From a virus: a stretch of DNA of 22,835 nt. The stretch is from positions 1-22,835 of IMG/VR virus record IMGVR_UViG_3300030117_007192. One strand, given 5' to 3'. Every line of letters begins with the position of its first letter. The first letter of the stretch is position 1. The notes beneath the pieces are model-generated. The model did not search any database. It saw only the letters and a list, made by a program, of their open reading frames with translations, and was not told the origin of the DNA. This document shows, piece after piece, positions 1 to 21,006 of this stretch. A program made the position numbers and the translations under genes.

Positions 1-1874
1 TTCAATGGAATAAACATCGTAAAAGATTTATGTTCGCTGGTGTTAGTTGTTTAGATTATCTCGCATTATATAAACTTTTTACCTATACACAATTATCATC
101 CTACAGATTAGATGCTGTAGCAGAACACGAGTTGGGTGAAAATAAGATAGAGTATTCAGGCACACTAAATGATTTATATGAAAATGATATCGATAAGTTT
201 GTAGAATATAATATACATGATGTTAGGTTAGTGAAACGAATGCATGATAAATTAGATTTTATCGACATGGCTCGTGGTGTATGTCATGTAGGTCACGTTC
301 CATATGAAGATGTTTATTTTTCTTCTCGCTATTTAGAGGGTGCTATATTAGTTTATCTTAAAAACTTAGGAGTTGTTGCTCCTAATAAACCAATAAAACC
401 TGATATGAGTAGTGGTGATAAATTCACAGGCGCTTATGTACAATCACCACAAAGAGGAAAGCATGATTGGGTATTTGATTTGGATATTACTTCTATGTAT
501 CCATCAGTTATTATGTCTTTGAATATATCACCTGAAACTAAAATTGGTAAGTTAAAGGGTTGGGATGCTGAAGAGTTTCTAAAAGGAACTAAGAAAACAT
601 ATACCTTAGAATCTAATGGTAGGGAAAAGGGAAAGTTAACTGAAACAGAACTAAAAGATTTCTTCGATAACAATAAGGTTTCAGTATCTTCTAATGGTGT
701 ATTATATCGTAGTGATAAGAAAGGATTGATTCCAGCCCTATTGGAAAAGTGGTTCGATACTCGTGTGGAGTATAGAAAGTTGATGAAGAAGTTTGGTGAC
801 GCTGGAGATAATGATAAATACACATACTTTAAAAGTCGTCAGTTGATTCAGAAGGTGGTTCTAAATTCATTGTATGGTGTGTTGGGTTTGCCAGTATTCC
901 GATTCTATGATTTGGATAATGCGGAAGCTACCACACTTACAGGTCAAGAACTAATTAAGTTTACCAAAAAGATAGGCAATCATTTCTATAATAAAGAATT
1001 AGGAACTGATAAAGATTATTGTATTTATATCGATACTGATTCAGTATTCTATTCAGCAGTTCCATTGGTTAATAAACGATTTCCAAATAAGGAGTTTACA
1101 GAAACCAGAATGAGTAAAGTAATTTTAGATGTGGCTGATGAGATGCAGACTTATCTGAACAAATCTTATGATTACTTTGGTAAGAGATTTCTTAACTTAG
1201 ATAAACATAGGTTTGAGATAAAGCAGGAGTTGATAGCTAAATCAGGTTTGTTTATTGTGAAGAAACGATACGGTATGAAGATTATCAATGACAATGGAGT
1301 AAAGGTAAACAAACTGCATGTAAAAGGTTTAGACTTAGTTCGTAGTAACTTTCCAAAGGCTATGGGGCAATTATTAAAAGATGTGTTGGAAGATATATTG
1401 GCTACCGTTCCAAAGGATAAGATAGATGAAAGAATTATAAACTTTAAGGAGTCTATGAAATTAGTAGACTTTGATAAGATAGCTATGCCAACAGGTGTGA
1501 AGAACCTAAAGAAATATAGTGCGGGTAAGAATGGAAACTTTACTCAGTTTGCTAAGGGAGCTCCAGCGCATGTTAAGGCTGCTATAACCTATAATAATTT
1601 ATTAGATCATTTTGGTGTTGGTGATAAGTATGAGAAAATAGGTAACTCAGAAAAAATTAAATGGGTATATCTAAAAACAAATGAGCTTGGTTTAGATTCG
1701 TGTGGTTATAAGGGATATGAAGATCCACCAGAAATAGTTCAGTTTATGAAAGATAATATTGATTATAAAAAAATGTATGCTCAAATGTTAGAGAAGAAAA
1801 TAATGATGTTTTATGATTCACTAACTTGGGATGAACCTGTAAACAAAAAGAAATCTATAGAGAGGTTTTTCTAA
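1..1874 (+). CDS. gp43: Family B DNA polymerase, T4 gp43-like (5' partial)
   Basis: This is the replicative DNA polymerase with proofreading exonuclease. The reading frame is open from base 3 with no stop before the first ATG at 30, so the true start lies upstream and the ATG at 30 is internal. Numbering from that ATG, the exonuclease part is visible: an Exo II region resembling T4 gp43 (residues about 5-35) and Exo III Y60-x3-D64. Polymerase motif A is DLDITSMYPS (150-159), motif B is KVVLNSLYG (275-283) and motif C contains D335-T-D337, the metal-binding pair. The C-terminus ends in KKSIERFF, which fits a sliding-clamp binding tail like that of T4 gp43. The visible 623 codons match the exonuclease-to-C-terminus part of a T4-type enzyme, about 900 residues in full. 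All catalytic motifs present are intact. The stop overlaps the glutaredoxin start by one base. Confidence 0.96.
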   Translation, partial: QWNKHRKRFMFAGVSCLDYLALYKLFTYTQLSSYRLDAVAEHELGENKIEYSGTLNDLYENDIDKFVEYNIHDVRLVKRMHDKLDFIDMARGVCHVGHVPYEDVYFSSRYLEGAILVYLKNLGVVAPNKPIKPDMSSGDKFTGAYVQSPQRGKHDWVFDLDITSMYPSVIMSLNISPETKIGKLKGWDAEEFLKGTKKTYTLESNGREKGKLTETELKDFFDNNKVSVSSNGVLYRSDKKGLIPALLEKWFDTRVEYRKLMKKFGDAGDNDKYTYFKSRQLIQKVVLNSLYGVLGLPVFRFYDLDNAEATTLTGQELIKFTKKIGNHFYNKELGTDKDYCIYIDTDSVFYSAVPLVNKRFPNKEFTETRMSKVILDVADEMQTYLNKSYDYFGKRFLNLDKHRFEIKQELIAKSGLFIVKKRYGMKIINDNGVKVNKLHVKGLDLVRSNFPKAMGQLLKDVLEDILATVPKDKIDERIINFKESMKLVDFDKIAMPTGVKNLKKYSAGKNGNFTQFAKGAPAHVKAAITYNNLLDHFGVGDKYEKIGNSEKIKWVYLKTNELGLDSCGYKGYEDPPEIVQFMKDNIDYKKMYAQMLEKKIMMFYDSLTWDEPVNKKKSIERFF

Positions 1875-2143
1875 TGGTAAAATTATACACCACTTCAAGA
1901 TTAAAAAATTGTCCAGTTTGTGATATGGCGAAAAAATTTCTACATAAACATAATGTTGAATATCAAGAAATAGATGCTGCAGTTGAAAGAGAAGCTTGGA
2001 ATGAAATGTTTAAAAAAACAAAAAAGATTATTTTCCCACAGCTGCTAATCGGAGAAGTTAGTATTGTTGGATGGCTACAACCTGAACAAGAGTATAAAAT
2101 ATTAGATTTATTAAGAGAAAATAAAATTGATTTTGAACAATAA
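1874..2143 (+). CDS. Glutaredoxin
   Basis: This 89-residue protein is a small thioredoxin-fold disulfide reductant. A VKLYTTS beta strand is followed by the redox motif C13-P-V-C16, then a helix, and a FPQLLIG segment supplies the cis-proline (P55) that packs against the active site. A GW pair later in the sequence occupies the glutathione-contact region of the family. Length is normal for a single-domain glutaredoxin. T4-like phages commonly carry one to recycle phage ribonucleotide reductase, so a role in dNTP supply is a fair inference from its place directly behind the polymerase. Its ATG shares one base with the polymerase TAA, which suggests translational coupling. Partner specificity (glutathione or thioredoxin reductase) cannot be read from the sequence. 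Confidence 0.92.
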   Translation: MVKLYTTSRLKNCPVCDMAKKFLHKHNVEYQEIDAAVEREAWNEMFKKTKKIIFPQLLIGEVSIVGWLQPEQEYKILDLLRENKIDFEQ

Positions 2144-2190: not shown

Positions 2191-2907
2191 ATGAATAAAC
2201 ATTCATTAAACCGTTTCATTGACAAATATTATCTTGGAGGAAATTGCTCTTCTGTTGTAATAAAAAGTGATGGTAGTAACCTATCCACCAGATTTATTAC
2301 AGGCGATAAGAATTTGCTTGGTGAACTTAAAATGTCAGATTGGAAATTTGATAAAGCTGAGCTCGGTGTATATAATACAGAGCAGTTAGTAAAACTACTT
2401 TCAGTTATGTCAGATAATATTTCTATGAATTTGACAAAAGCTGGTGATAAGGTTGTTTCGTTGAAAGTATCGGATAGTTCTTCTGATGTAAATTATATGT
2501 TATCTGATTTATCAGTAATAAATACACCACCAAATCTTAAATCTGTGCCTGAATTTGAGGTAAAGATAAAAGTTGATAAATCTTTTATGAATAAGTTTGT
2601 CGCTGGTAAAGGTGCTCTAGCCGATACTGATAACTTTACAGTATTAACAAATGATGATGGCGTGAGGGTTGTAATTGGTTATGCTGAGATTAATACTAAT
2701 CGTGTTACGTTGCCAGTTGAAACAGAATCTTATGAAGTAATAGATAATGTTTCTTTCAATGCTAATCTATTTAAAGATGTGTTGGTAGCTAATAAAGAAT
2801 GTGAGAGCGCTACATTAGAGGTGAGTTCGCAAGGTTTAGCTCGCATCAATTTTAAAGTTGATGAGTATGATGCGACATACTATTTAGTTGCTGATACAGA
2901 TGTGTAA
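2191..2907 (+). CDS. gp45: Sliding clamp, T4 gp45-like
   Basis: This 238-residue protein is the DNA polymerase processivity clamp. T4 gp45 (228 residues) forms a trimeric ring around DNA, tethers the polymerase and also activates late transcription. The protein has alternating short beta strands and acidic/amphipathic segments, two repeated halves (about 1-115 and 116-238) as expected for clamp folds, and no catalytic motif. Assignment rests on general resemblance to T4-type clamps, on size, and on position between polymerase and clamp loader, which is the standard replisome order in this phage group. It has its own strong SD and upstream gap, so it probably opens an operon. The polymerase tail SIERFF is the likely ligand for its inter-domain pocket. 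The next gene starts immediately after its TAA with no spacer. Confidence 0.88.
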   Translation: MNKHSLNRFIDKYYLGGNCSSVVIKSDGSNLSTRFITGDKNLLGELKMSDWKFDKAELGVYNTEQLVKLLSVMSDNISMNLTKAGDKVVSLKVSDSSSDVNYMLSDLSVINTPPNLKSVPEFEVKIKVDKSFMNKFVAGKGALADTDNFTVLTNDDGVRVVIGYAEINTNRVTLPVETESYEVIDNVSFNANLFKDVLVANKECESATLEVSSQGLARINFKVDEYDATYYLVADTDV

Positions 2908-3669
2908 ATGGAGTCTTATGTAGACAAAGCAAAAGTATCTTTAAAGCCAGTCCATAAAGGACTGGCTAGAGATATGATTATAAGAAATCATTATAGCCGT
3001 AAAATGTCAGCTTGTCGATATACTCTTGGAGTATTTTACAAATCTGATGGTCATAAATTTTTTGATGGTGATACAGAAGATTTTATTGGTGTTGCATGCT
3101 ATGGTTTTCCTGTTGGTAGAAGAGTTGTCGGCTCGATATTCAAAGAAGAGATTATACAAAATAAAAATATCTTAGAATTAAAAAGACTATTTATACACGA
3201 TGGATATGGTAAAAATATTGAGTCTCATGTTATATCTTCTTCTTTTAAATGGATGAAACAATACGCGCCAGATATTAAAGTGTTAGTATCTTATGCTGAT
3301 CCTGAACAATCGCATGATGGTGCTATTTATCAGGCTACTAATTGGATATATCAAGGTTGTGGAGACTTTCAGTTAGCTCCTACATATTCATTAAGATTGA
3401 ATGAAGAGGATGATTGGATGCACAGTAGAAATGTATATTCGAGATATGGTTCAGCAGCTCCTAAAAAATTAGAAAAAGCCATAGGAAGAGATTTCTGGTT
3501 AAAAAAAGAAGCAAGTAAACACAGATACATTTATTTTCTTGGTAATAAAAAAGAGAATAGATATTTTAAAAAAATGATGAAACATCCTGTTATGGATTAT
3601 CCTAAAAACTATAAGCATGATGTGGAAATAATAAAAGTAGAGGTAGAAAATACAAAATGGGAGAATTAG
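2908..3669 (+). CDS. Mom-like DNA modification protein (paralogue 1)
   Basis: This 253-residue protein resembles phage Mu Mom, the GNAT-fold enzyme that converts adenine in DNA to N6-(1-acetamido)adenine and protects it from restriction. Seen here: an N-terminal NHYSR motif (about 27-31), an ELKRLF strand before a helix, and the family signature SYADPEQSHDGAIYQATNW (128-146). The C-terminal half ends in a FWLKKEASKHRYIYF strand. The second paralogue at 5263 repeats all of these in the same order (HYSR, ELRRL, SFAD..H.G.IYKASNF, FWKKRKSKHIYVYY). It lies directly behind the clamp stop (TAA then ATG, no gap) and its 3' end overlaps the clamp-loader start by 13 bases, so it is made together with the replisome. 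The modification product and sequence target are unknown. The N- and C-terminal extensions relative to paralogue 2 may mean a different target. Confidence 0.78.
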   Translation: MESYVDKAKVSLKPVHKGLARDMIIRNHYSRKMSACRYTLGVFYKSDGHKFFDGDTEDFIGVACYGFPVGRRVVGSIFKEEIIQNKNILELKRLFIHDGYGKNIESHVISSSFKWMKQYAPDIKVLVSYADPEQSHDGAIYQATNWIYQGCGDFQLAPTYSLRLNEEDDWMHSRNVYSRYGSAAPKKLEKAIGRDFWLKKEASKHRYIYFLGNKKENRYFKKMMKHPVMDYPKNYKHDVEIIKVEVENTKWEN

Positions 3670-4583
3670 GTTTACATACCCTTTGGGTTGAAAAATACAG
3701 GCCACAAAACTTAGATAAATATATAGGTAATGAACACCTAATTGAAAAGGCTAAGGTGTGGATAGAATCAGGTGATATTCCACATTTATTATTATATGGC
3801 AAAGCTGGTACAGGTAAAACCACATTAGCAAAGATGTTAACAAATAGTATAGATTGTGATTATTTATACATCAACGCATCAGATGAGAGAAAGCTTGAGA
3901 TGGTCAGAGAAAAGGTTAAAAGTTTTGCATCAACTATCGGTTTTAAAGATATGAAGGTTATTATTTTAGATGAGGCTGATTACATTACACCAACATCACA
4001 AGCGGCTCTTCGTAATGTTATGGAAACATTCTCTAAACATTGTAGGTTTATTTTGACTTGTAACTTTGTAGAAAGAATCATTGATCCGATACAGAGTCGT
4101 TGTCAATCATTTCAAATAATTCCACCATCTAAAAAAGAAGTTGCTATACATCTTTCAAATATTTTAAAAGAAGAAAGTATTGATTATTCAAATGATAATG
4201 TGGTTAGTTTAGTACAATCTGGTTATCCTGATATTCGTAGAGTTATTAATTCTGCACAAAGACAAGTTGTTGATGGTAAATTAGTTGTTGATCAACAGGC
4301 ACTAATAGAAAATGATTACAAATTAAGTCTTATTAAAATACTAAAAGAAGAAAGTAAAAAAGATGCTTTTAAGAATATTAGAAAGTTATTAGCTGATTCT
4401 AAGGTTACAGATTTTGCAGATGGTTTTAGATTATTGTATGATACGTTAGATGATTGGGCTGTTGGACATACTGCTGAATGTATTTTGACTTTAGCAGAAG
4501 GTCAGAGAGATGACATAGTTGTAGTGGATAAAGAGATAAACTTTATGGCTACAATGGTAAAAATATTAACAATTATAAAGTGA
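3657..4583 (+). CDS. gp44: Clamp loader large subunit, T4 gp44-like AAA+ ATPase
   Basis: This 308-residue protein is an RFC-type AAA+ ATPase that opens gp45 and loads it at primer-template junctions, working as a gp44(4):gp62(1) complex in T4. The N-terminus carries LWVEKYRPQNL, the RFC box typical of the family. Walker A is GKAGTGKTT (48-56), Walker B is VIILDEAD (101-108) and the trans-acting arginine motif is S147-R148-C149. The remaining C-terminal region is helical and matches a clamp-loader collar. Length agrees with T4 gp44 (319). The start overlaps the Mom-like gene by 13 bases. It is followed after 7 bases by the zinc-ribbon gene and then the probable small subunit. Confidence 0.96.
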   Translation: MGELGLHTLWVEKYRPQNLDKYIGNEHLIEKAKVWIESGDIPHLLLYGKAGTGKTTLAKMLTNSIDCDYLYINASDERKLEMVREKVKSFASTIGFKDMKVIILDEADYITPTSQAALRNVMETFSKHCRFILTCNFVERIIDPIQSRCQSFQIIPPSKKEVAIHLSNILKEESIDYSNDNVVSLVQSGYPDIRRVINSAQRQVVDGKLVVDQQALIENDYKLSLIKILKEESKKDAFKNIRKLLADSKVTDFADGFRLLYDTLDDWAVGHTAECILTLAEGQRDDIVVVDKEINFMATMVKILTIIK

Positions 4584-4590
4584 GGTTATT

Positions 4591-4824
4591 ATGAATATGA
4601 AACCACGAAAACCATTACCACAACCAAAAGTCAAAGTCGATTTAACAAAAGCTGATAATATGAAATGCGAGAAATGTGGTAATTACTCTTTTATACAATC
4701 TTTCTTTCTTAAAAGATTATCACCATTGGTATCGCCTACAGGTGAAGAAGCTATAATACCTATACAGGTTTATGCTTGTGGTAATTGTGGAACTGTACCA
4801 ACAAAGATGATGCCAGATGCCTAA
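4591..4824 (+). CDS. Small zinc-ribbon protein
   Basis: This 77-residue protein has two CxxC knuckles: C26-E-K-C29 in CEKCGN and C63-G-N-C66 in ACGNCGT, 33 residues apart. That is the pattern of a zinc ribbon. The first 25 residues are rich in Lys and Pro and probably disordered. No catalytic motif is present. It sits between the two probable clamp-loader subunit genes, and similar small zinc-ribbon proteins are familiar next to gp62 in marine T4-like phages. A role in DNA or protein binding at the replisome is inferred from position only. Its stop overlaps the next start by 8 bases. Confidence 0.7.
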   Translation: MNMKPRKPLPQPKVKVDLTKADNMKCEKCGNYSFIQSFFLKRLSPLVSPTGEEAIIPIQVYACGNCGTVPTKMMPDA

Positions 4825-5266
4825 TATTAAAAAGAAAGGTTTGTTTGATCATGTAAAGCAAATTACAGATTTTCAAAGTCCTAATTATTGGGATGAGATA
4901 TCAGAAGAAGATAAAAAGACTTGGTCTAATTTTATGATAAATAGATTTTTATCTATGAAAATGGATTGGATAGAAATTGTAAATGAGATTCAAAAATATC
5001 AATTAGAGCCAAAAGAATTATATAAATTTTATACAGATATATTGCCAAAGAAAAGACAATGGTTAAAATATATCAAAGGAGATAAGAAAATGAAGTATCC
5101 TAATTGGGTTTATGAAATAGTAGCTAAAGACTTACAATGTAGTCTAAAAGAAGCTGCTGAAGCTGTAGAAACATATGAGATGTCATATGGTGGTCAAGCA
5201 GAACTAACAGATATGCTAATGAAGTATGGTAAAACAGAGGATGAGTGCCGTAAGATTGGATTATGA
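4817..5266 (+). CDS. gp62: Probable clamp loader small subunit, gp62-like
   Basis: This 149-residue, mostly helical protein is best explained as the small clamp-loader subunit. It begins GLFDHVKQIT, followed by a WSNFMINRFLSM segment that corresponds to the conserved 'FMVNRALS' type region of gp62 proteins, and then an LPKKRQWLKYIK segment like the basic 'P-x-(K/R)-R' stretch after it. It has no ATPase motifs, as expected for gp62, which does not hydrolyse ATP. T4 gp62 is longer (187), and shorter versions are usual in T4-like marine phages. Support comes from these partial similarities and from its place after gp44. The stop TGA overlaps the next ATG (ATGA), coupling it to the second Mom-like gene. 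Confidence 0.68.
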   Translation: MPNIKKKGLFDHVKQITDFQSPNYWDEISEEDKKTWSNFMINRFLSMKMDWIEIVNEIQKYQLEPKELYKFYTDILPKKRQWLKYIKGDKKMKYPNWVYEIVAKDLQCSLKEAAEAVETYEMSYGGQAELTDMLMKYGKTEDECRKIGL

Positions 5267-5895
5267 GTGTAAAAGACTATACCGTAGAATCTGTTAACAG
5301 AAAGTCGGTAAAGAATTTTATTGAAAAATATCATTATAGTCGTAACATAAACGGATTACATTCTGATTATCAATTTGGTTTGTATACAGAGGGAAACTTT
5401 GGTTTACCTAAAATGATAGGAGCCATGTTATATGGAACACCATCTATGCCAGATACAGCGGCTAAATATAATCCGATCAATCCTAATAGGTGTATGGAAT
5501 TAAGAAGGTTGGTTTGTATTGATGATACACCTAAGAATACAGAGAGCTATTTTATTGGTAAAACTTTGAGATGGCTAAAACAAAATACAGATGTAGAGGT
5601 TATAGTTTCCTTTGCCGATCAGCATTATGGTCATTCGGGTGTTATTTACAAAGCTAGTAACTTTGATCATTTTGGAGAAACAGCAAAAGCGAGAGTATTA
5701 ATGGTTGATGGTAAAGAGTATCATCCAAGAACAATGAATCAAAAAGATAAACCTTATGGTCGTGCTATTAAGAAAAGATATTTAAGTGGTGATGAAAATA
5801 TATTTTGGAAGAAGAGAAAATCCAAGCATATTTATGTATACTATCTCAATAAAAAAATCAAAAGACAAATAAAAAAGTTAAATGATAACAATTGA
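5263..5895 (+). CDS. Mom-like DNA modification protein (paralogue 2)
   Basis: This 210-residue protein is a second Mom-type GNAT-fold protein. It has the KYHYSR motif near residue 23-28, a MELRRLV strand, and the signature SFADQHYGHSGVIYKASNF (116-134), which matches the SYADP..GH.GTIYKA.NW pattern of Mu Mom closely. The C-terminus ends in FWKKRKSKHIYVYYLNKK, parallel to paralogue 1 at 2908. It is therefore a genuine diverged duplicate, separated from the first copy by the clamp-loader genes. The family modifies adenine in DNA. Whether this copy is active or has another specificity is unknown. The ATG overlaps the gp62-like TGA by four bases, and the next gene overlaps its 3' end by 14 bases. 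Confidence 0.8.
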   Translation: MSVKDYTVESVNRKSVKNFIEKYHYSRNINGLHSDYQFGLYTEGNFGLPKMIGAMLYGTPSMPDTAAKYNPINPNRCMELRRLVCIDDTPKNTESYFIGKTLRWLKQNTDVEVIVSFADQHYGHSGVIYKASNFDHFGETAKARVLMVDGKEYHPRTMNQKDKPYGRAIKKRYLSGDENIFWKKRKSKHIYVYYLNKKIKRQIKKLNDNN

Positions 5896-6490
5896 ATTAG
5901 TTAAAGATTTAAGTCAAAAAAAAGTTGTAAAAAGTATTATAGAAAATCATCATAGTTATGTAGCATCTAATGACTCAGTAGGTAGAAGAATAGATTGGTT
6001 AGTTTATCATTCGGATTATACAAATGTGTTGGGGCTTGAAAAACCTATAGGGATGATTGGTATAGGATCTTCTGTTTATCCATGTCCTAAAGATATATTG
6101 AATTTCTTAGGTAAAAAGGCAGATGAGTATAAAGAACCTAAACATTTCAATACTATAGCAAACAATTGGAGATTCTGTATGACAAAATCAATAAAAAATG
6201 CAGGAACACAGATATTGAAAAAGGTTAGAAAACAAGCACCTATAGAGTGGAAGAAAAAGTATGGAGATGATTTGAAGTGGTTAATTACTTTTGTCGCTGG
6301 TGGTAATAATGGTGCTGTCTACAAAGCAGACAATTGGAAACAGATTGGTCAAACTGCTGGATTGGCGAAAGAAAGAAAATCATTTTCAGTTAAATGGAAT
6401 AGTGCAGAATATTTAAAAGAAACTTTTTTACCACCAACTGGTGAAAATAAAAAAATAATTTTTATAAAAAAGCTTGACTTGTATAGGTAA
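5882..6490 (+). CDS. DUF4338/DruA-like relative of Mom (third copy)
   Basis: This 202-residue protein is distantly related to its two Mom-like neighbours. It keeps NHHSY (22-26) in place of the HYSR motif. The signature region is FVAGGNNGAVYKADNW (137-152) followed by KQIGQTAG (153-160). The segment before it has NNWRFCM and then LKKVRKQAPIEWKKKYG. That layout (N-x-RF, helix, P-x-x-W-x-x-x-YG, FV...G..Y.A.NW..IG.T.G) is what I associate with DUF4338, the core family of DruA in Druantia defence. The usual Asp of FAD/YAD/FVD is replaced by Ala139-Gly140, so activity could be altered. It overlaps the preceding gene by 14 bases and ends the replisome operon. Function in the phage is unknown; a DNA-modifying or DNA-binding role is inferred. 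Confidence 0.6.
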   Translation: MITIELVKDLSQKKVVKSIIENHHSYVASNDSVGRRIDWLVYHSDYTNVLGLEKPIGMIGIGSSVYPCPKDILNFLGKKADEYKEPKHFNTIANNWRFCMTKSIKNAGTQILKKVRKQAPIEWKKKYGDDLKWLITFVAGGNNGAVYKADNWKQIGQTAGLAKERKSFSVKWNSAEYLKETFLPPTGENKKIIFIKKLDLYR

Positions 6491-6528: not shown

Positions 6529-6972
6529 TTGGAGCAATCTTTATTAGATATTAAAAGAGGTGTGACTATGAGTAAAAAAATAATAAAAGAATCTAAAAAC
6601 AAAAAAGAGGTAAATTCTTATTTAACAGGTGATAATGGTGACATTGTAACAATGATGGAAAAAGAATGGCCGGTGATGACGGCTGAGTTCCGTAGATTAC
6701 AAAGAGAACAATATGAATTGTTCTTAAAAAAACAACATGACTATGGTCCAGGTAATATTTCTGTAGGTACTATGTTACAAACAGAAGAAGAAATACAATT
6801 ATCACTTACAGGTCTTTGGTTTCGTATGAACGATAAGATACAGAGACTTAAAAATATGTTGATGAGTAAAAGAGAATCTGCTGTTGATGAACCAATGGAA
6901 GATGCTTACTTAGATGTAAGTAATTATGGCATTATGGCTACCATAGTTAAGAATGGTAAATGGGGTAAGTGA
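6529..6972 (+). CDS. DUF1599/Nmad1-like nucleotide-modification-associated protein
   Basis: This 147-residue helical protein matches the DUF1599 pattern, which I recall being named nucleotide modification associated domain 1 (Nmad1): K-x-x-DYG near residues 66-73 (KKQHDYGPGN), then a WFRMNDKIQRL helix with D102-K103, then an acidic MEDAYLDVSNYGIM helix. The alternating acidic helices recall all-alpha nucleotide pyrophosphohydrolase-like folds, but I cannot show activity. Two starts compete. TTG 6529 has AAGGAG at ideal spacing. ATG 6568 (residue 14) has AGAGG seven bases upstream and would give 134 residues. The conserved domain lies after both. It follows three Mom/DUF4338-like genes, which fits a role in making or handling modified nucleotides. 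Confidence 0.66.
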   Translation: MEQSLLDIKRGVTMSKKIIKESKNKKEVNSYLTGDNGDIVTMMEKEWPVMTAEFRRLQREQYELFLKKQHDYGPGNISVGTMLQTEEEIQLSLTGLWFRMNDKIQRLKNMLMSKRESAVDEPMEDAYLDVSNYGIMATIVKNGKWGK

Positions 6973-7127: not shown

Positions 7128-7239
7128 GTATGAGTGTAAGGCTGGTACTTATGAATCAGATACATTGATTGGTTTGTTATGGGAAAGGTTTACTCATAAG
7201 TTGTGGCATCTGAGAAAGCACGGAAGGTGGATGGATTGA
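7105..7239 (+). CDS. Small protein of unknown function (44 aa)
   Basis: This short gene has a clear Shine-Dalgarno AAGGAG (7093-7098) seven bases before its ATG. The 44-residue product starts MTTNGVYKYECKAG and ends with a basic, aromatic segment (FTHKLWHLRKHGRWMD). No domain is recognised. Its TGA (7237-7239) overlaps a TTG (7236-7238), the likely start of the nuclease gene, so it may exist partly to couple that gene. The strong ribosome site and exact fit between neighbours are the evidence that it is translated. Confidence 0.55.
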   Translation: MTTNGVYKYECKAGTYESDTLIGLLWERFTHKLWHLRKHGRWMD

Positions 7240-8072
7240 AGAAGATAAGTTATAGTCAGTATTCCCTTTGGAAACAATGTCCGTATCAATGGAAACTACA
7301 GTATGTTGATGGAATTAGAGAATACACAGATAGTATTCACACTATGTTTGGAACTTCAATGCATGAGGTTATACAGACATTTTTAACTGTAATGTACAAT
7401 GATACTGCTAAACTAGCAGAGCAATTACCATTGGAAGATATGTTACTAACCAGAATGAAGCGTAACTTTGAAGAGATTGTTAAGAACAATGGTGGTGAGA
7501 TGTTTTGTTCAGAAAAAGATATGGTTGAGTTCTATGGTCATGGTGTTCAGATATTAGACTTTCTCAAAAAGAAAAGAGCTCAATATTTTAGTAAGAAAGG
7601 TTATGAGTTAGTTGGCATTGAAGTTCCTTTAAATTATAATTTACCTAATAATCTAAAGTTTGTAGGTTTTTTAGACGTGGTAATTAAAGATACAGTACGT
7701 GATGTGATTAAGATATATGATATTAAGACTTCTACTATGGGTTGGAACAAATATGTAAAAGCTGATAATAATAAAACAGATCAGTTGTTATTATACAAAC
7801 AGTTTTATGCTAAACAATTTAATCACCCAATTGAAAAAATAGAGGTTGAGTATTTTATACTAAAAAGAAAGCTGTATGAAAATGTAGATTTTCCACAAAA
7901 AAGAGTTCAGAAATTTGTTCCTGCAAATGGTAAACCAAGTATAAATAAAATGGTTGCTAGATTTAAAGAATTTATAGATGCCACATATGATAAGGAAGGC
8001 AACATAAAGGATATTAAATATGAAAAGTGTGTTGGAAAATGTAAAGCCTTTAACAAATGTAAAGACTTATGA
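7236..8072 (+). CDS. PD-(D/E)XK nuclease, RecB/Cas4-like, possible Fe-S protein
   Basis: This 278-residue protein belongs to the PDDEXK_1 (RecB/AddB/Cas4) nuclease group. It begins KKISYSQYSLWKQCPYQWK, the N-terminal signature of the group with C15. The catalytic core is GFLDVV with D147, then IYDIKTS with D162 and K164, then the Q183-L-L-L-Y187 motif. Three cysteines near the end (C265, C269, C275) plus C15 fit a 4Fe-4S cluster as in AddB and Cas4, though the spacing (C-x3-C-x5-C) should be checked. Such nucleases are common in marine T4-like phages and probably act in recombination or DNA processing. I chose TTG 7236, which overlaps the upstream TGA and has GGAAGGTGG just before it. GTG 7203 is an alternative with no SD. 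Confidence 0.85.
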   Translation: MKKISYSQYSLWKQCPYQWKLQYVDGIREYTDSIHTMFGTSMHEVIQTFLTVMYNDTAKLAEQLPLEDMLLTRMKRNFEEIVKNNGGEMFCSEKDMVEFYGHGVQILDFLKKKRAQYFSKKGYELVGIEVPLNYNLPNNLKFVGFLDVVIKDTVRDVIKIYDIKTSTMGWNKYVKADNNKTDQLLLYKQFYAKQFNHPIEKIEVEYFILKRKLYENVDFPQKRVQKFVPANGKPSINKMVARFKEFIDATYDKEGNIKDIKYEKCVGKCKAFNKCKDL

Positions 8073-9134: not shown

Positions 9135-9385
9135 GTTTAAACTTTAGAGATGATTTGATAAAAGCTAGTGAAAAACAATTTGAGGCTCTTATCCATAAAC
9201 ATAGAATAAATGTTGAAGTTTTATTAGAAAACACAGTTGGTGTAGCTGAACATTCTGATATTATGGAAACTATAGAAAAAGAGATTGCTGTTATAGCGGA
9301 GTATGAGGATAAATTGTCAGTTCTACGAAAGTATTTTAAAAGTGGTTGGGCTGCTGGTAAAAACAAAGAGGTTTTAAATGGCTAA
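9131..9385 (+). CDS. Unknown small coiled-coil-like protein (84 aa)
   Basis: This 84-residue acidic, helical protein has no recognised domain. The central part (SDIMETIEKEIAVIAEYEDK) shows heptad-like hydrophobic spacing, suggesting a helical hairpin or coiled coil. Comparable short proteins with a VGV-x-(D/E)H motif are, as I recall, found in marine T4-like phages, but I can assign no role. Initiation is at GTG 9131, overlapping the preceding TGA in a GTGA junction, with GGGAG shortly upstream. The 3' end overlaps the first glycosyltransferase gene by 8 bases, so this is the last gene before the carbohydrate block. Confidence 0.6.
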   Translation: MSLNFRDDLIKASEKQFEALIHKHRINVEVLLENTVGVAEHSDIMETIEKEIAVIAEYEDKLSVLRKYFKSGWAAGKNKEVLNG

Positions 9386-10769
9386 AAAGAAGATTTTGTT
9401 GTTCTCAGATGATTTGAGAATGTCATCTGGTGTGGGAACAATGTCAAGAGAAATTGTTTTAGGCACTTTAGATAAATTTGATTGGGTTCAAGTTGGTGGT
9501 GCTATAAAACATCCTGATGAGGGTAAATTTATAGATATGAATGAATCAGTTCGTAAAGATACTGGCATAAAAGACGCTTACCTAAAAATAATACCAACTT
9601 CAGGTTACGGTACACCTGAACTATTAAGACATTTGTTGTCAGTAGAAAAACCAGATGCTATACTACATTACACCGACCCAAGATTTTGGGAATGGTTGTA
9701 TCAGATGGAACACGAGGTAAGACAAAACATACCAATTTTCTATTACAATATTTGGGATGACTTACCATATCCAATGTGGAATGAGCCATTTTATGAGAGT
9801 TGTGATTTGATTATGAACATATCCAAACAGACAGTAAATATTGTTAATAATGTGCGTAAGGATGTTCCAACGAATGAATGGAATAATACTTATGTTCCAC
9901 ATGGCATAAATGAAAAAAACTTTTATCCTGTAAAAAAAGGTCATAAAGAATATGGTGATATGCTCAGTTTAAAGAGAAAGGTAACTCAAGATAAAGAGTA
10001 TGATTTTATAATATTTTGGAATAATAGAAACATTCGTAGAAAGTTACCTGGTGATGTTATAATGGCATACAAAACATTTTGTGATATGTTACCAAAGGAA
10101 AAGGCTGAAAAATGCGCACTAGTTATGCATACCCAACCAAAAGATCCTAATGGTACAGATTTACCAGAGGTTGTTTCTGCTGTATGTCCTGATTATGATG
10201 TTATATTTTCTACTCAAAAATTAGATGATAAAAATCTTTGCTATATTTACAATATTGCTGATGTTCAACTTAATATGGCATCTAATGAAGGATTTGGATT
10301 AGGAACTTGTGAGGCTTTGATGTGTGGAACTCCAGTATCAGTTAATGTTACTGGTGGATTACAAGACCAATGTGGGTTTAAGTACAAAGACAAGTTACTA
10401 ACCTATGAAGATTACAGTTGGGTTCACTCACTACATGATGATAAAAAGTGGAAAGGTAATTCTGATTTAACTTGGGGTGAGTGGGTAAAACCAGTTTGGC
10501 CATCCAATCGTAGTTTGCAGGGTTCAATACCAACTCCATATATATTTGATGATAGACCAAGATTTGAAGATTTTGCTGATGCTATTAAAGAGTGGTATGA
10601 TATGGGTAAAGAAGAAAGAGATAGGTGTGGTATGTTAGGACATGAGTTTGTTATGAGTGATGATGCTATGATGAGTGCTAGTGCTATGTGTAGAAATTTT
10701 GTAGATCATATGAATACAGCATTTGATAAGTGGTCGCCAAGAAAACGTTATACAATTTTTAAAGGTTAG
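9378..10769 (+). CDS. GT4-type glycosyltransferase (GT-B fold)
   Basis: This 463-residue protein is a predicted retaining glycosyltransferase. The N-terminal Rossmann half starts KKILLFSDDLRMSSGVGTMSRE, where the SGVG loop replaces the usual G-G-x-E/x motif and typically contacts the acceptor. The C-terminal donor-binding half contains NEGFGLGTCEALMCGTP with the E-x7-E motif (E304 and E312) and a VTGG loop. Donor sugar and acceptor cannot be deduced. It is followed after 8 bases by a second GT4-type gene with the same E-x7-E layout, so the two may add successive sugars. The C-terminal 80 residues are unusually rich in Met and Asp. It opens the carbohydrate block, with its ATG overlapping the upstream gene. 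Confidence 0.88.
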   Translation: MAKKKILLFSDDLRMSSGVGTMSREIVLGTLDKFDWVQVGGAIKHPDEGKFIDMNESVRKDTGIKDAYLKIIPTSGYGTPELLRHLLSVEKPDAILHYTDPRFWEWLYQMEHEVRQNIPIFYYNIWDDLPYPMWNEPFYESCDLIMNISKQTVNIVNNVRKDVPTNEWNNTYVPHGINEKNFYPVKKGHKEYGDMLSLKRKVTQDKEYDFIIFWNNRNIRRKLPGDVIMAYKTFCDMLPKEKAEKCALVMHTQPKDPNGTDLPEVVSAVCPDYDVIFSTQKLDDKNLCYIYNIADVQLNMASNEGFGLGTCEALMCGTPVSVNVTGGLQDQCGFKYKDKLLTYEDYSWVHSLHDDKKWKGNSDLTWGEWVKPVWPSNRSLQGSIPTPYIFDDRPRFEDFADAIKEWYDMGKEERDRCGMLGHEFVMSDDAMMSASAMCRNFVDHMNTAFDKWSPRKRYTIFKG

Positions 10770-10777
10770 GAGACAAT

Positions 10778-12112
10778 ATGAAACCGTTAGTTTTAGTTAC
10801 AGGTCCACCAGCAACAAGAAGTGGATATGGTGCTCATACAAGAGATTTAATTCACTCTTTACTAAGAATGGATAAATTTGAAGTAAAAATAAATTCATTA
10901 AGGTGGGGAAATACACCTATGAATGCTCTAAATGCTGAAAATCCTAAAGATAAATTGATAATAGATAGGTTGTTAAAAGAAAATAGTATGGATAGACAAC
11001 CTGATATCCATTTTCAAATAAGCGTACCAAATGAATTTACACCCGTAGGGAAGTACAATATAGGAATAACTGCTGGTATTGAAAATACTGCTCCAAAAGC
11101 GGAATGGGTTGAAGGTTTAAATAGAATGGATATGAATATAGCAGTATCTCATTTTGTTAAAAATACTTTTCAAGCTCTTGTTTATGATAAATTAAATGAT
11201 CAGCAACAAAAAATAGGAGAGTTGAGACTTGTAAAACCAATGGAAGTTTTATTTGAGGGTGTTGATTTGGACATCTATAAAAAGACTAAAGATTTTTCTA
11301 AAGAGCTTGTCGATGAAATGAATAAAATAGAAGAGAAGTTTTTATTTTTATACACAGGTCATTGGTTGCAGGGTGATCTTGGAGAGGATAGAAAAGATAC
11401 AGGTATGTTGGTTAAAACATTTTTAGAGACATTTAAAAATAAAAAAAGACCACCTGCTTTGTTATTAAAAACTAGTGGTGCTACATTTTCAATTTTAGAT
11501 AGAAATTCTATGTTAGAAAAAATAAATGAAATAAAATCAAAAGTTAAGGGTAAGTTACCTAATGTTTATCTACTACATGGAGACTTGGAAGATGAAGAAA
11601 TAAATGAACTTTATAATCACCCAAAGGTAAAAGCTCATATTACTTTCACACATGGTGAAGGATTTGGTCGTCCACTATTAGAAGCTTGTTTTTCTGAAAA
11701 ACCTATAATTGCTCCTGATTGGAGTGGTCAAAAAGACTTTCTAAATAAAAATAATGCTGTTCTTTTACCAGGTGGTTTAATTGATGTCCATCCTTCAGCA
11801 GTTCCAAAGGAAATGTTACAAGAGGGTGCAAAATGGTTTAGTGTTAATTATCAGTACGCTGGTCAAATTATGTTTAAAGTTTTTAAACAATATAAACAAT
11901 TTACTATGGCTGCTAAACGTTTATCGATGGCTAATAGAGCCTTTTCTTTAGAAAATATGGATAAAAAATTTGAAGAGATATTAAATAAATGTCTACCAAA
12001 GTTTGAAGAACAGCCAATGCCAGTAAGTCTCAAATTACCTAAACTAAAAAAGGTTAGTAAACCAGCTGAAGCTCCAAAAATGAATCTACCAAAATTAAAG
12101 AAGGTGAAGTAA
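10778..12112 (+). CDS. GT4-type glycosyltransferase with Lys/Pro repeat tail
   Basis: This 444-residue GT-B protein starts KPLVLVTGPPATRSGYGAHTRD, a nucleotide-fold strand followed by a glycine-rich acceptor loop. In the C-terminal half HGEGFGRPLLEACFSEKP holds E294 and E302 of the GT4 E-x7-E motif, and APDWSGQKDF follows in the donor pocket. After residue about 405 the enzyme fold ends and a basic, Pro-rich tail begins in which LPKLKKV occurs twice (420-426 and 437-443). The tail is probably disordered and may tether the enzyme to a partner, membrane or nucleic acid. AGGAG lies just before the ATG within the end of the previous gene. The last A of its TAA is the first base of the next ATG. 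Confidence 0.88.
   Translation: MKPLVLVTGPPATRSGYGAHTRDLIHSLLRMDKFEVKINSLRWGNTPMNALNAENPKDKLIIDRLLKENSMDRQPDIHFQISVPNEFTPVGKYNIGITAGIENTAPKAEWVEGLNRMDMNIAVSHFVKNTFQALVYDKLNDQQQKIGELRLVKPMEVLFEGVDLDIYKKTKDFSKELVDEMNKIEEKFLFLYTGHWLQGDLGEDRKDTGMLVKTFLETFKNKKRPPALLLKTSGATFSILDRNSMLEKINEIKSKVKGKLPNVYLLHGDLEDEEINELYNHPKVKAHITFTHGEGFGRPLLEACFSEKPIIAPDWSGQKDFLNKNNAVLLPGGLIDVHPSAVPKEMLQEGAKWFSVNYQYAGQIMFKVFKQYKQFTMAAKRLSMANRAFSLENMDKKFEEILNKCLPKFEEQPMPVSLKLPKLKKVSKPAEAPKMNLPKLKKVK
12035..12106 (+). repeat. Two in-frame copies encoding LPKLKKV
   Basis: Two 21-base in-frame units (12035-12055 and 12086-12106) encode the same heptapeptide LPKLKKV at the C-terminus of the second GT4-type enzyme. The codons differ (tta/cta, cct/cca, cta/tta), so the peptide rather than the DNA has been kept. 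This suggests a short linear binding motif. Confidence 0.75.
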
Positions 12113-12588
12113 TGGAAAAAAGAACAGATTGTCCTTTATGTAAAGACTTACATGATAATTGTGTAGTGGAGGAAACTAAAGATGACAATGGAAATAATTT
12201 TGAATCATACATATGTTTTGGTTGTGGAATGACAACTAATTCTTATATGGCTATAGATAGTGAACATTTAGAAAAGTCTACTGAAAATAACACAGCTTTA
12301 ATGAATGATTTAAAAATAATAGATGATGAAAGAGATTTAGTTTGGTATCCATCTGTGGTTAATATGGGAGAAAAAGGAATAATATATCCTGATGGTAAAC
12401 CAAATGATTGGTATTGGTATTATGCTAAAATAGTAGATATACCTGAGGAAGATAGAGATAAATATGATGGACATAGTAAAAGGTTAGATATAGAAAACCC
12501 TCAAAAATTTGGCCAATTTGAATTTATGGATGCTTGTAAAGCTATGGGTATAATGTTAGAGGGTGAAGGAGATAAAGTAGACTTATAA
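12112..12588 (+). CDS. Zinc-ribbon protein of unknown function (158 aa)
   Basis: This protein begins with a zinc-ribbon-like module: C7-P-L-C10 and C35-F-G-C38, separated by an acidic loop with an extra C17. Residues 45-158 form an acidic domain rich in Trp and Tyr (DLVWYPSVVNMG, NDWYWYYAKIVDI). No catalytic motif is visible. I believe relatives occur in marine T4-like phages as conserved hypotheticals. It lies between glycosyltransferase genes and may be older than the carbohydrate insertion. Its TAA and the next ATG share one base. Confidence 0.65.
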   Translation: MEKRTDCPLCKDLHDNCVVEETKDDNGNNFESYICFGCGMTTNSYMAIDSEHLEKSTENNTALMNDLKIIDDERDLVWYPSVVNMGEKGIIYPDGKPNDWYWYYAKIVDIPEEDRDKYDGHSKRLDIENPQKFGQFEFMDACKAMGIMLEGEGDKVDL

Positions 12589-13028
12589 TGGCTAAAATAG
12601 CTTACAATTGGACTAAGGTAAAACGTGGAGATATTATAGAATTTAAATATCGAAATACGAAAGGTAGTATTTTAAGAAGAACCATATTGGTTTTAGAACC
12701 TAAACTGGCAAATAAAGCAAAAAATAAATCAAGTGATTATCTATTACATGGTATACAACTAGAAGTTTCAAATGTGTCTACAAATACTAAATTACAAAAA
12801 ATATTAGAGGCTGCTGGTGATGTTAAGGTGGTGGATGAAAAAAAGAAAATATACAGAGTTGATATAGATAAAAGCACTAAACAAATATACTCTGAGTTAA
12901 AATCTGTAATAAAACAGAATGGTATTTATAGAACTTATAACTATGACAGAGCTAAAAAAAGTCAGGTATTTTTAGAAGATTTAAGGTTGCCACCATCATT
13001 CGTAAAGGAATTGATCGGTGATAATTAG
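12588..13028 (+). CDS. Conserved phage-type unknown protein (146 aa)
   Basis: This 146-residue basic protein has an N-terminal beta-rich segment (VKRGDIIEFKYRNTKG, then RRTILVLEPK) that looks like a small SH3-type barrel, and a helical, Lys-rich second half ending in LRLPPSFVKELIGDN. No enzyme motif is seen. Together with the preceding zinc-ribbon gene it is the only non-carbohydrate pair inside the block, so it probably belongs to the phage core. A nucleic-acid binding role is possible from the basic charge and barrel-like start, but this is a guess. The next GTG start lies inside its 3' end (11-base overlap). Confidence 0.6.
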   Translation: MAKIAYNWTKVKRGDIIEFKYRNTKGSILRRTILVLEPKLANKAKNKSSDYLLHGIQLEVSNVSTNTKLQKILEAAGDVKVVDEKKKIYRVDIDKSTKQIYSELKSVIKQNGIYRTYNYDRAKKSQVFLEDLRLPPSFVKELIGDN

Positions 13029-13680
13029 TTACGGTATTACAGTTTATGATGAGGCTGAAGAATTAAAAAAGTTATTAAATACTTTAATTGATAATGTAGA
13101 TTTAGGACTGGATGAAATTATAATTTGTGTGGATGGTAATGATGAAGCAGTTGAGTTTGAACTTGAGACTTTCACACAAAATCATTTTGATACAATTGAT
13201 ATTAAAGTATATCAGAGGAGTCTTAATAAAGATTTTGCATCTCAAAAAAATTCAATTATAGAAAATTCAAAGGGTGATTATATATTTCATATAGATGCTG
13301 ATGAATATCCTAATGAAATATTACTACAACAGTTAAAAGAGATATTAAAGATAAATGATGTTGATTTGGTTTGGATTCCACGCGTAAATACAATTGAGGG
13401 TATGGAAGAAGTGCACATAAAAAAATGGGGTTGGAGAATATCAGAAAAGAATTGGGTGAACTATCCAGACTATCAGGCGCGAGTATTTCGGCGTGATAGT
13501 GAAATTCGTTGGGAGAGACCTCTTCACGAGGTTATAAGAGGTTACAAAACATATTCACATTTACCACCACATGAAGAGCTAAGTTTGTATCATCCAAAAA
13601 CAATTGAAAAGCAAGAGAAACAGAATATGTTTTATAATAAAAATTTTAGTAAAGAGATGAATGTCAGGAGGGGAGTATGA
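13018..13680 (+). CDS. GT2-family glycosyltransferase
   Basis: This 220-residue GT-A enzyme starts ISYGITVYDEAEELKKLLN, the usual opening of family 2 with acidic residues after the first strand. It then has IIICVDGNDEA, where the sugar-nucleotide uracil is normally bound, and HIDADEYPNE with D93-A-D95 as the metal-binding DxD. ERPLHEVIRGYK in the last third resembles the catalytic-loop region of short GT2 enzymes related to LPS core transferases. The enzyme is compact with no membrane helices, so it probably acts in the cytoplasm on a soluble or peripheral acceptor. Translation is from GTG 13018 with AAAGGA eight bases upstream. It overlaps the following gene by four bases. Confidence 0.87.
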   Translation: MIISYGITVYDEAEELKKLLNTLIDNVDLGLDEIIICVDGNDEAVEFELETFTQNHFDTIDIKVYQRSLNKDFASQKNSIIENSKGDYIFHIDADEYPNEILLQQLKEILKINDVDLVWIPRVNTIEGMEEVHIKKWGWRISEKNWVNYPDYQARVFRRDSEIRWERPLHEVIRGYKTYSHLPPHEELSLYHPKTIEKQEKQNMFYNKNFSKEMNVRRGV

Positions 13681-15119
13681 TATTTTGGAGAATAGTAGAT
13701 AATAAAGTTTATGCTGTTGAAGAAACAGATACTCTTGGATTTTCAAAATCAGATGGTTTAGCAATACCTGATGATTATTTAGATAGACAAGAATTTATGG
13801 TTATGAGAACAGCACATGGAATAGGTGATTGGGGTATCATATCTGCTATGCCAAGACTTCTTAAAGAAAAGTATCCTAACTGTAAAGTATATGTACCATC
13901 AACTAAAATGTTAGAAAATTTATTTTCTGAACATTTTAATAATTGGAATTCTTGGAATAGTAAGTTCGGAAATGCGAAAAGTATATTTAAACACAATCCT
14001 TATGTTGATGAGTTTGTAGATCAATATGATGGTGAAATTTTTCACGACCACTATAGAATTTATGACAATGAGAATATAGATACACCCTTATTAGAACAAA
14101 TGTTAAAGTTCTGGCAATTTAAAGAAAATGAATATAAAGATTCTCAACCAGAACTATACTGGTCTGATGAGGAAAAAAGTTTAGGTGATGCTATAATAAA
14201 AGAGTATACTGATGAAAATGAATTCGGTTGTTTATTAATATCAGATAGATATGACTATACTATGGATGAACTAATAGAGGATAAAATTGACGAATTCATA
14301 CCACATTTTTATTGGACTGAACGACCAATAGAACAAACTGAATTTGATTATATAAATAAAGCTTTGGATATGCGAAATATGGATGTTAGAATTCAGTTGT
14401 ATATAAAATCTAAAGCTAAATATAATGTAGGAAATCAATGTGGTACTTCACAAATAGTAACTAGGTATTCTGATGTTTATAGTGTACAAAGACAATTTCC
14501 TATAGCTCACAACCTAGTTAGAGGTGAGCATTTATTAGATGATGAATATAAAAGAGTTCATTTAGCTAGAGCACCTGATAAATTTGAATCAAAAACTACG
14601 ACATCTCTAAAATTTAAAGCAGATTTGATAGATTTTTTAGGCGATAGATACAAAGATAAAAATGTTATTGAAATAGGATGCTCATTAGGTTATACATCAC
14701 ACGCTCTAAGTGGTTACTTTAACAAAGTAACAGCTGTGGATTTTGATCCAACTAGAATACAATCAGCTAAAGATTTTAGTAAAGATAAAACTAATATTGA
14801 TTTTATTGTAAAAGATGTTTACAGAACTGCTTGGGATTTTGATAAAAACCATCAGGTAGTTTTTATAGATTGTGTGCATGATTATCCATTTGTAAAAAAT
14901 GATATTATAAATGCTATAAATTATTTTGACAAACCAATGTTGATTTTTGATGACTATGGATTGTTTCCAAATAGTGTTATGAAAGCTGTAAATGAATTTA
15001 TAGATCAAGGTGTGTTGGAAGTTATAACAAAGATAGGTCATAAAAAAGATGTTGTTTTTGAAAAAACAGCGCATAAAATATTAAGAGATTATGAGGGTTT
15101 AATATGTCAAGTAAAATAG
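13677..15119 (+). CDS. Two-domain protein: GT9-like N-terminus plus SAM methyltransferase
   Basis: This 480-residue protein has two parts. Residues about 40-290 resemble a GT9 (heptosyltransferase-like) GT-B fold: MRTAHGIGDWGIISAMPRLL matches the family's GxGD start, and KYPNCKVYVPS and HNPYVDEFV have the spacing expected after it. Residues about 310-480 are a class I SAM methyltransferase with motif I NVIEIGCSLGYTS (329-341), the acidic end of strand 2 in VTAVDFDP, and FIDCVHDYPF as the post-strand-4 motif. The fusion suggests that transfer and methylation of one sugar are coupled. The GT9 half is weaker evidence and may be degenerate. ATG 13677 overlaps the upstream TGA (ATGA); the next gene starts 16 bases before its stop. 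Confidence 0.72.
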   Translation: MIFWRIVDNKVYAVEETDTLGFSKSDGLAIPDDYLDRQEFMVMRTAHGIGDWGIISAMPRLLKEKYPNCKVYVPSTKMLENLFSEHFNNWNSWNSKFGNAKSIFKHNPYVDEFVDQYDGEIFHDHYRIYDNENIDTPLLEQMLKFWQFKENEYKDSQPELYWSDEEKSLGDAIIKEYTDENEFGCLLISDRYDYTMDELIEDKIDEFIPHFYWTERPIEQTEFDYINKALDMRNMDVRIQLYIKSKAKYNVGNQCGTSQIVTRYSDVYSVQRQFPIAHNLVRGEHLLDDEYKRVHLARAPDKFESKTTTSLKFKADLIDFLGDRYKDKNVIEIGCSLGYTSHALSGYFNKVTAVDFDPTRIQSAKDFSKDKTNIDFIVKDVYRTAWDFDKNHQVVFIDCVHDYPFVKNDIINAINYFDKPMLIFDDYGLFPNSVMKAVNEFIDQGVLEVITKIGHKKDVVFEKTAHKILRDYEGLICQVK

Positions 15120-20996: not shown

Positions 20997-21006
20997 GGAG
21001 AATGAT

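What the first reader, a model, noticed from the sequence alone, without database searches (positions are those of the whole stretch)
2908..6490. Three Mom/DUF4338-like genes woven into the replisome operon
The clamp is followed without spacer by a Mom-like gene, and the clamp-loader genes are followed by a second Mom-like gene and a third, more divergent relative. Copies 1 and 2 share HYSR, EL(K/R)RL, S(Y/F)AD...H.G.IY.A.N(W/F) and a FW..(E)...SKH.Y.Y tail in the same order, so they are duplicates. Known: Mu Mom adds an acetamido group to adenine in DNA and is expressed late. Inferred: placing these genes between clamp and loader would make modification simultaneous with fork movement, possibly with different sequence targets for each copy. 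I know of no described system of this layout.
Basis: partly seen in the sequence, partly recalled or inferred. Interest (0 to 1): 0.85.

Follow-up and report, generated by a model that had tools for sequence, protein, structure and literature searches.

The report
Phage replisome operon carries DNA-modification slot
Uncultured, mostly aquatic phages carry DNA-modifying enzymes (in this window two true Mom enzymes and a relative of the defence protein DruA) inside the gene cluster for their replication machinery, and in related phages one position there, between the sliding clamp and its loader, is usually either empty or filled by such an enzyme, which suggests a dedicated place for protecting new phage DNA.

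Summary
MOM1 (2908-3669) and MOM2 (5263-5895) are Mom-family proteins (Pfam E 6.5e-43 and 4.6e-44), match the solved Mu Mom structure, and keep every residue invariant across 13 compared Moms, including the serine mutated in the inactive Mu enzyme. MOM3 (5882-6490) is a short DruA/DUF4338-type GNAT, only remotely related to Mom. All three abut or overlap genes of a T4-like replisome operon and are under strong purifying selection. MOM1 and MOM2 are not in-situ duplicates: they belong to two old Mom lineages. The layout recurs in dozens of contigs. Main new result: the clamp|clamp-loader junction behaves as an exchangeable slot. In 68 clusters fetched with loader queries only, 17 slots are empty and 46 of 51 occupied ones hold Mom, full-length DruA or DNA amino-methyltransferases. 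Cultured cyanophages also carry DruA beside clamp-loader genes. Best reading: anti-restriction DNA modification made together with the replisome. Modification at the moving fork is not shown: the slot enzymes lack the clamp-binding-like tail seen on the polymerase. No chemistry was tested. If right, DruA/DUF4338, of unknown function, gains a testable role.

The parts
30..1874 (+). family B DNA polymerase, C-terminal part; ends in KKKSIERFF, a clamp-binding-like tail conserved in relatives
   Evidence: ORF; C-termini of relatives; identity as PolB from synteny with Mel-JY01 and reading
1874..2143 (+). glutaredoxin-like protein
   Evidence: reading of CPVCDMAKKFL; not in most relatives
2191..2907 (+). 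gp45-type sliding clamp
   Evidence: phrog_223 E 5e-13
2908..3669 (+). MOM1, Mom-family enzyme, occupant of the clamp|loader slot
   Evidence: PF25680 E 6.5e-43, phrog_1384, PDB 8bv8 by sequence 4.5e-11 and by fold 1.2e-13; dN/dS about 0.04-0.10
3657..4583 (+). gp44-type AAA+ clamp loader
   Evidence: phrog_168 E 1e-81
4591..4824 (+). small zinc-ribbon protein; a gene at the same place is also present in Mom-less relatives
   Evidence: weak zinc-ribbon hits
4817..5266 (+). gp62-type clamp-loader small subunit
   Evidence: phrog_225 E 1.7e-13
5263..5895 (+). MOM2, second Mom-family enzyme, of another Mom lineage
   Evidence: PF25680 E 4.6e-44, phrog_1384 1e-59, 8bv8 3e-17; tree
5882..6490 (+). 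MOM3, short DruA/DUF4338-type GNAT
   Evidence: all 23 family members match PF14236, best 8.9e-22; the window protein alone is 2e-5, below the curated cut-off; AF2 GNAT fold
6568..6972 (+). DUF1599, 'nucleotide modification associated domain 1'; also kept in Mom-less relatives
   Evidence: PF07659 E 1.3e-7
7203..8072 (+). PD-(D/E)XK exonuclease of the replication/recombination operon
   Evidence: PF12705 E 2.8e-20, phrog_69

Best explanation
The three genes are accessory DNA-modification genes of a phage with a T4-like replisome. MOM1 and MOM2 are GNAT-fold Mom enzymes expected to place the Mom group (carbamoylmethyl/acetamido) on adenine N6 of phage DNA, each probably with its own sequence preference. 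MOM3 is a DUF4338/DruA-type GNAT that most likely also acts on DNA bases or assists a Mom. They are written into the replication operon with abutting or overlapping start and stop codons, so they are made together with clamp and clamp loader, and new genomes can be modified as they accumulate rather than late as in Mu. The clamp|loader junction is an exchangeable slot: over evolution Mom, full-length DruA and several amino-methyltransferases replace one another there, as expected if hosts' restriction systems keep changing. SHOWN: gene order, family membership of MOM1/MOM2, conserved active-site residues, purifying selection, slot exchange. INFERRED: DNA as substrate, early/middle expression, anti-restriction role, different specificities, MOM3 activity.
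For: Family and fold. Residues invariant in 13 Moms are all present in MOM1 and MOM2, including MOM1 S106 and MOM2 S95, which align with Mu S124, mutated in the 'inactive mutant S124A' structure 8bv8 (titles). Purifying selection as strong as for clamp and loader: dN/dS about 0.04-0.12. Layout pol-clamp-Mom-loader-62-Mom(-DUF4338)-DUF1599-exo recurs in many contigs. Slot: with loader queries only, 68 clusters = 17 empty, 14 Mom, 19 MT405, 11 DruA, 2 further methyltransferases, 5 unassigned 463-aa family (families). Junction contrast: 50 of 66 occupants of 150 aa or more are modification-type at clamp|loader, 0 of 32 at loader|gp62 (Fisher p about 3e-14, ignoring kinship). At least 17 changes of slot state on the loader tree. 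The same enzymes lie near other replication genes: Mom beside ribonucleotide reductase and DnaB-type helicase, DruA beside or between gp44 and gp62 in cyanophages, MOM3 homologues between gp33 and gp59/gp32.
Against: No modified base was measured and no expression data exist. Mom specificity cannot be read from sequence. MOM3 lacks the aspartate of the Mom S(Y/F)AD motif, so it may be inactive on bases or act on something else. Promoter scans were uninformative. The slot counts come from the best 80 loci per query, not a census, and from related phages, so they are not independent events.
Confidence: 0.66

Rival explanations
1. Neutral cargo hotspot: the clamp|loader junction is merely a safe, recombination-prone landing site, and modification enzymes are found there only because phages carry many of them. 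The position has nothing to do with replication.
For: High turnover of occupants (at least 17 changes); one 463-aa family without a database hit and a 2OG oxygenase also occur there; MOM3 shows recent exchange relative to its neighbours (dS 0.28 against 1.4-1.7 for neighbouring genes with the same relative L084).
Against: The neighbouring loader|gp62 junction takes many genes but none of the modification families scanned (0 of 32); the enzymes recur beside other replication genes; overlapping frames and strong purifying selection.
Confidence: 0.22
2. Fork-coupled modification: the enzymes bind the clamp and modify adenines directly behind the polymerase.
For: Position next to the clamp gene and overlap with loader and gp62; replacement by other DNA-modifying enzymes at the same place.
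Against: No clamp-binding-like C-terminal peptide on Mom, DruA or MT405, whereas the polymerase keeps one (...ERFF) across relatives. Internal interaction motifs were not searched; gene order is not protein contact.
Confidence: 0.1
3. The GNATs are not DNA modifiers but acylate proteins or small molecules (host takeover or counter-defence).
For: MOM3 resembles many GNATs about equally and lacks the Mom aspartate; a phage GNAT that acylates RNA polymerase is known (Rac, as cited in PMC7824862).
Against: MOM1 and MOM2 match Mom far better than any other GNAT and keep all Mom-invariant residues; they alternate with DNA methyltransferases at one locus.
Confidence: 0.1

Closest known systems
Phage Mu Mom (PF25680 / phrog_1384; PDB 8bv8)
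   Same: Sequence family and all residues invariant in 13 Moms are shared by MOM1 and MOM2; fold match for MOM1.
   Different: Mu has one mom gene at the genome end with the overlapping regulator gene com and late expression (general knowledge; PMC4461284 abstract); here two Moms from different lineages are embedded in a replication operon and no com-type gene overlaps them.
DruA / DUF4338 (PF14236, phrog_19197) of Druantia and of cyano- and pelagiphages
   Same: MOM3 family members match DruA best; full-length DruA occupies the same clamp|loader slot in a sister lineage and lies next to or between gp44 and gp62 in S-PRM1 and S-SSM7.
   Different: MOM3 is 202 aa instead of about 400, and no other Druantia component was seen in the window.
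Mom genes near replication genes in cultured phages (Enterococcus LoneStar, Klebsiella RaK2, Geobacillus PK3.6)
   Same: Mom next to DNA polymerase, dihydrofolate reductase/Dda helicase, or HNH/SSB genes.
   Different: Single Mom, not between clamp and loader, no DUF4338 partner seen nearby.
Phage DNA amino-methyltransferases (PF01555, PF02086)
   Same: Occupy the same slot in relatives, the expected functional equivalents.
   Different: Unrelated fold and chemistry (methylation).
Microcystis phage Mel-JY01 replication operon
   Same: Closest annotated isolate by clamp loader; similar order of pol, clamp-position gene, loader, small gene, gp62 and exonuclease.
   Different: No Mom annotated or detected in the operon.

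Membership tests
Mom family (PF25680), MOM1 and MOM2 | Profile match above curated cut-off (27.1 bits) | tested here: met
   147.2 and 150.9 bits
Mom family (PF25680), MOM1 and MOM2 | GNAT fold matching Mu Mom | tested here: met
   MOM1 model, best hit 8bv8 E 1.2e-13; MOM2 by sequence 3e-17, its fold was not modelled
Mom family (PF25680), MOM1 and MOM2 | Residues invariant in Moms, including the Ser of inactive Mu S124A | tested here: met
Mom family (PF25680), MOM1 and MOM2 | Adds the Mom group to adenine in DNA | not testable with these tools
   needs nucleoside mass spectrometry
Mu mom-com control | com-like zinc-finger gene overlapping the start of mom | tested here: not met
   the only small zinc-ribbon gene (4591-4824) lies before gp62, and the place is also filled in Mom-less relatives
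Mom family, MOM3 | Profile match above cut-off | tested here: not met
   15.6 bits against 27.1; only 8 of 23 relatives match, weakly
DruA / DUF4338 (PF14236), MOM3 | Profile match above cut-off | tested here: inconclusive
   window protein 24.3 bits against 27; family members up to E 8.9e-22, 23 of 23 match at E 0.1 or better
Druantia defence system | DruA together with the other Druantia proteins, among them a very large helicase | tested here: not met
   no ORF above 614 aa in the window; PADLOC finds nothing for the three window proteins
In-situ duplicates (MOM1/MOM2) | Sisters in a tree of Mom proteins | tested here: not met
   MOM2 groups with Moms of Staphylococcus, Klebsiella, Vibrio and other phages (100/98), MOM1 with other marine Moms and Polaribacter phage

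The most novel reading that the evidence does not exclude
Phages with a T4-like replisome keep a dedicated, swappable DNA-modification slot between the sliding-clamp and clamp-loader genes; DUF4338/DruA is, like Mom, a DNA-base-modifying GNAT, so Druantia's DruA would be a DNA modifier or a reader of modified DNA; and several such enzymes with different targets act together on one genome while it is replicated.
Probability: 0.28. Interest if true: 0.82.

Novelty: new variant of a known kind. Interest (0 to 1): 0.62.

Why it matters
It turns an odd gene order into a pattern: Mom, DruA/DUF4338 and several amino-methyltransferases replace one another at one place in the replisome operon. That is evidence by analogous replacement for DruA/DUF4338, whose function is unknown although it names a defence system, and it suggests that many phages protect DNA as it is made rather than late as Mu does. 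It points to concrete genes to express and to phages whose virion DNA should be examined for modified adenines.

Tried and rejected
In-situ duplication of MOM1 and MOM2: rejected by the tree. MOM3 as a Mom: below cut-off and better as DUF4338. MOM3 as part of a Druantia system: no other component seen. The small zinc-ribbon gene as a Com-like Mom regulator: the position is also filled in Mom-less relatives. T4 late promoter TATAAATA: 9 matches against 7 expected, uninformative; sigma-70 and terminator scans no better than shuffles. Clamp-binding tail on the slot enzymes: none seen. MOM3 against annotated phages: no tblastn hit. MOM3 profile against cellular genomes: three distant or probably viral contigs. 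Literature: no paper found that describes Mom, DruA or methyltransferases between clamp and loader genes; the main Mom mechanism papers are not in the library. One search failed on wrong coordinates and on a length limit; neither is used.
Full report
WHAT IS THERE. The window is an uncultured virus fragment of 22,835 bases. Its first 8 kb are a T4-like replication operon read on the + strand: family B polymerase, glutaredoxin-like gene, sliding clamp, MOM1, gp44 loader, small zinc ribbon, gp62, MOM2, MOM3, DUF1599, PD-(D/E)XK exonuclease. MOM1 starts on the base after the clamp's stop codon, and MOM1/loader, gp62/MOM2 and MOM2/MOM3 overlap, as in translationally coupled operons (inference).

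FAMILIES. MOM1 and MOM2 match the curated Mom model far above cut-off and the PHROG 'Mom-like DNA modification protein'. Both find the solved structure of Mu Mom by sequence (8bv8; E 4.5e-11 and 3e-17). An AlphaFold2 model of MOM1 (pLDDT 87.5) has Mu Mom as its best structural match at E 1.2e-13, with the next fold at 5e-5. In an alignment of 13 Mom proteins every invariant residue is present in both: HY(S), two glycines, EL.R, N.(E)S, S.(A)D, G..Y.A.N, a histidine and a tyrosine. The serine of N.ES is Mu S124; the solved structure is titled 'inactive mutant S124A'.

THE THIRD GENE. MOM3 is not a Mom by the curated cut-off. All 23 aligned relatives match DruA/DUF4338 (best 8.9e-22) and only 8 match Mom, weakly. 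The window protein alone is just under the DruA cut-off. Profile comparison links it to MOM2 with probability 94, and its model is a GNAT in which Mu Mom is one of many similar matches. It keeps the histidine, the N..(S/T) position (as Thr109) and the G.VY.A.NW motif, but lacks the aspartate. DUF4338 is described as a GNAT domain in PMC10853773, and DruA-like proteins were noted in Synechococcus phages in PMC12774648.

NOT DUPLICATES. In a 61-protein maximum-likelihood tree MOM2 lies with Moms of Staphylococcus, Corynebacterium, Klebsiella, Geobacillus, Vibrio and Enterococcus phages (100/98), while MOM1 lies with other marine Moms and, less firmly, Polaribacter phage P12002L. The two lineages are old and were brought together. 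MOM3 moves separately: against relative L084 its synonymous divergence is 0.28, while MOM1, MOM2 and the loader are at 1.4-1.7, a sign of recent exchange.

CONSERVED LAYOUT AND SELECTION. The order pol-clamp-Mom-loader-zinc ribbon-gp62-Mom-DUF1599-exo recurs in dozens of loci, with MOM3 added in a subset (several loci can come from one contig). dN/dS against near relatives is about 0.04-0.12 for all three genes, like clamp and loader; several synonymous distances are near saturation, so these are approximate.

THE SLOT. Comparing relatives by what lies between clamp and loader gave the main result. In loci fetched only by loader queries (68 clusters at 95% loader identity) the junction is empty in 17, holds Mom in 14, a 405-aa amino-methyltransferase family in 19 (three times doubled, once with a D12-class N6-adenine methyltransferase, once with a 2OG oxygenase), full-length DruA in 11, further methyltransferases in 2, and an unassigned 463-aa protein in 5. 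The 405-aa family shows invariant LDFS.GWGDRLAGF and FTSPPYF motifs and hits N6_N4_Mtase, one member above and others below the curated cut-off, and PHROG DNA methyltransferases. So 46 of 51 occupied slots hold a base-modification-type enzyme. At the neighbouring loader|gp62 junction none of 32 occupants belongs to the families scanned; at gp62|DUF1599 nine of twelve do. The loader tree requires at least 17 changes of slot state (a quick tree, and fewer are forced by its best-supported branches). These counts are samples of related phages, not independent events or a census.

ELSEWHERE. Larger related records carry two or three Moms and usually one full-length DruA. One 207-kb relative has a Mom pair near thioredoxin and ribonucleotide reductase-type genes and DruA between clamp and loader (thioredoxin and reductase by reading, clamp, loader and DruA by profile). 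Other Moms lie beside ribonucleotide reductase and a DnaB-type helicase. Of 28 MOM3 homologues, 10 lie next to or near a Mom and 12 beside gp33 and/or gp59/gp32. In cultured cyanophages DruA follows gp44 in S-PRM1 and lies between gp44 and gp62 in S-SSM7; Enterococcus phage LoneStar has pol-Mom-thioredoxin. The association with replication genes is therefore wider than this window.

MECHANISM. Most likely MOM1 and MOM2 modify adenines of phage DNA as genomes are replicated, blocking host restriction, with MOM3 adding or assisting another modification. Shown: family, residues, operon position, selection, slot exchange. Inferred: substrate, timing, targets, MOM3 activity. Physical coupling to the fork is not supported by what was tested: the polymerase keeps a clamp-binding-like C-terminus (...ERFF) across relatives, the slot enzymes do not.

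NOVELTY. Mom enzymes, DruA and phage methyltransferases are known kinds. New here, as far as the searched library shows, is their shared, exchangeable place between clamp and loader genes and the pairing of two Mom lineages with a DUF4338 protein. I file it as a new variant of a known kind.

Noticed in passing
L089:7295-10547: Five GNAT genes in a row: two MOM3/DruA-type and three Mom-type, the largest array seen.
   Followed up: partly
L161:3561-5995 and L168:3550-5963: Two tandem 405-aa methyltransferases between clamp and loader.
   Followed up: partly
L177:415-1803 and relatives: A 463-aa protein without Pfam or PHROG hit occupies the clamp|loader slot in 5 clusters; it reads like a glycosyltransferase, which would fit DNA glycosylation but is unproven.
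   Followed up: partly
L362:4083-4487: A T4 endonuclease V-like repair enzyme (phrog_1183, E 2e-44) beside a DNA methyltransferase in the slot.
   Followed up: no
window 5882-6490: MOM3 is far closer to that of L083/L084 (dS about 0.27) than its neighbours are (1.4-1.7 with L084): a recent exchange of this gene alone.
   Followed up: partly
L452 (Pelagibacter phage Mosig) and L451 (HTVC008M): Full-length DUF4338 proteins in pelagiphages; in Mosig next to a putative peptide deformylase. Role unknown.
   Followed up: no
LR756508.1:268714-270039 (L209): Clamp loader of a 484-kb uncultured phage matches in two pieces, possibly interrupted by an intron or intein.
   Followed up: no
L090:1022-3798 and L030: DNA polymerase read as two adjacent ORFs in relatives: a frameshift, split gene or assembly error.
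   Followed up: no
window 9378-22440: Long run of glycosyltransferase, methyltransferase and sugar-nucleotide-type genes after the replication operon.
   Followed up: no
L211:3139-3711: MOM3 homologue (56%) on a short contig labelled Bacilli MAG from horse faeces, probably a phage contig.
   Followed up: no
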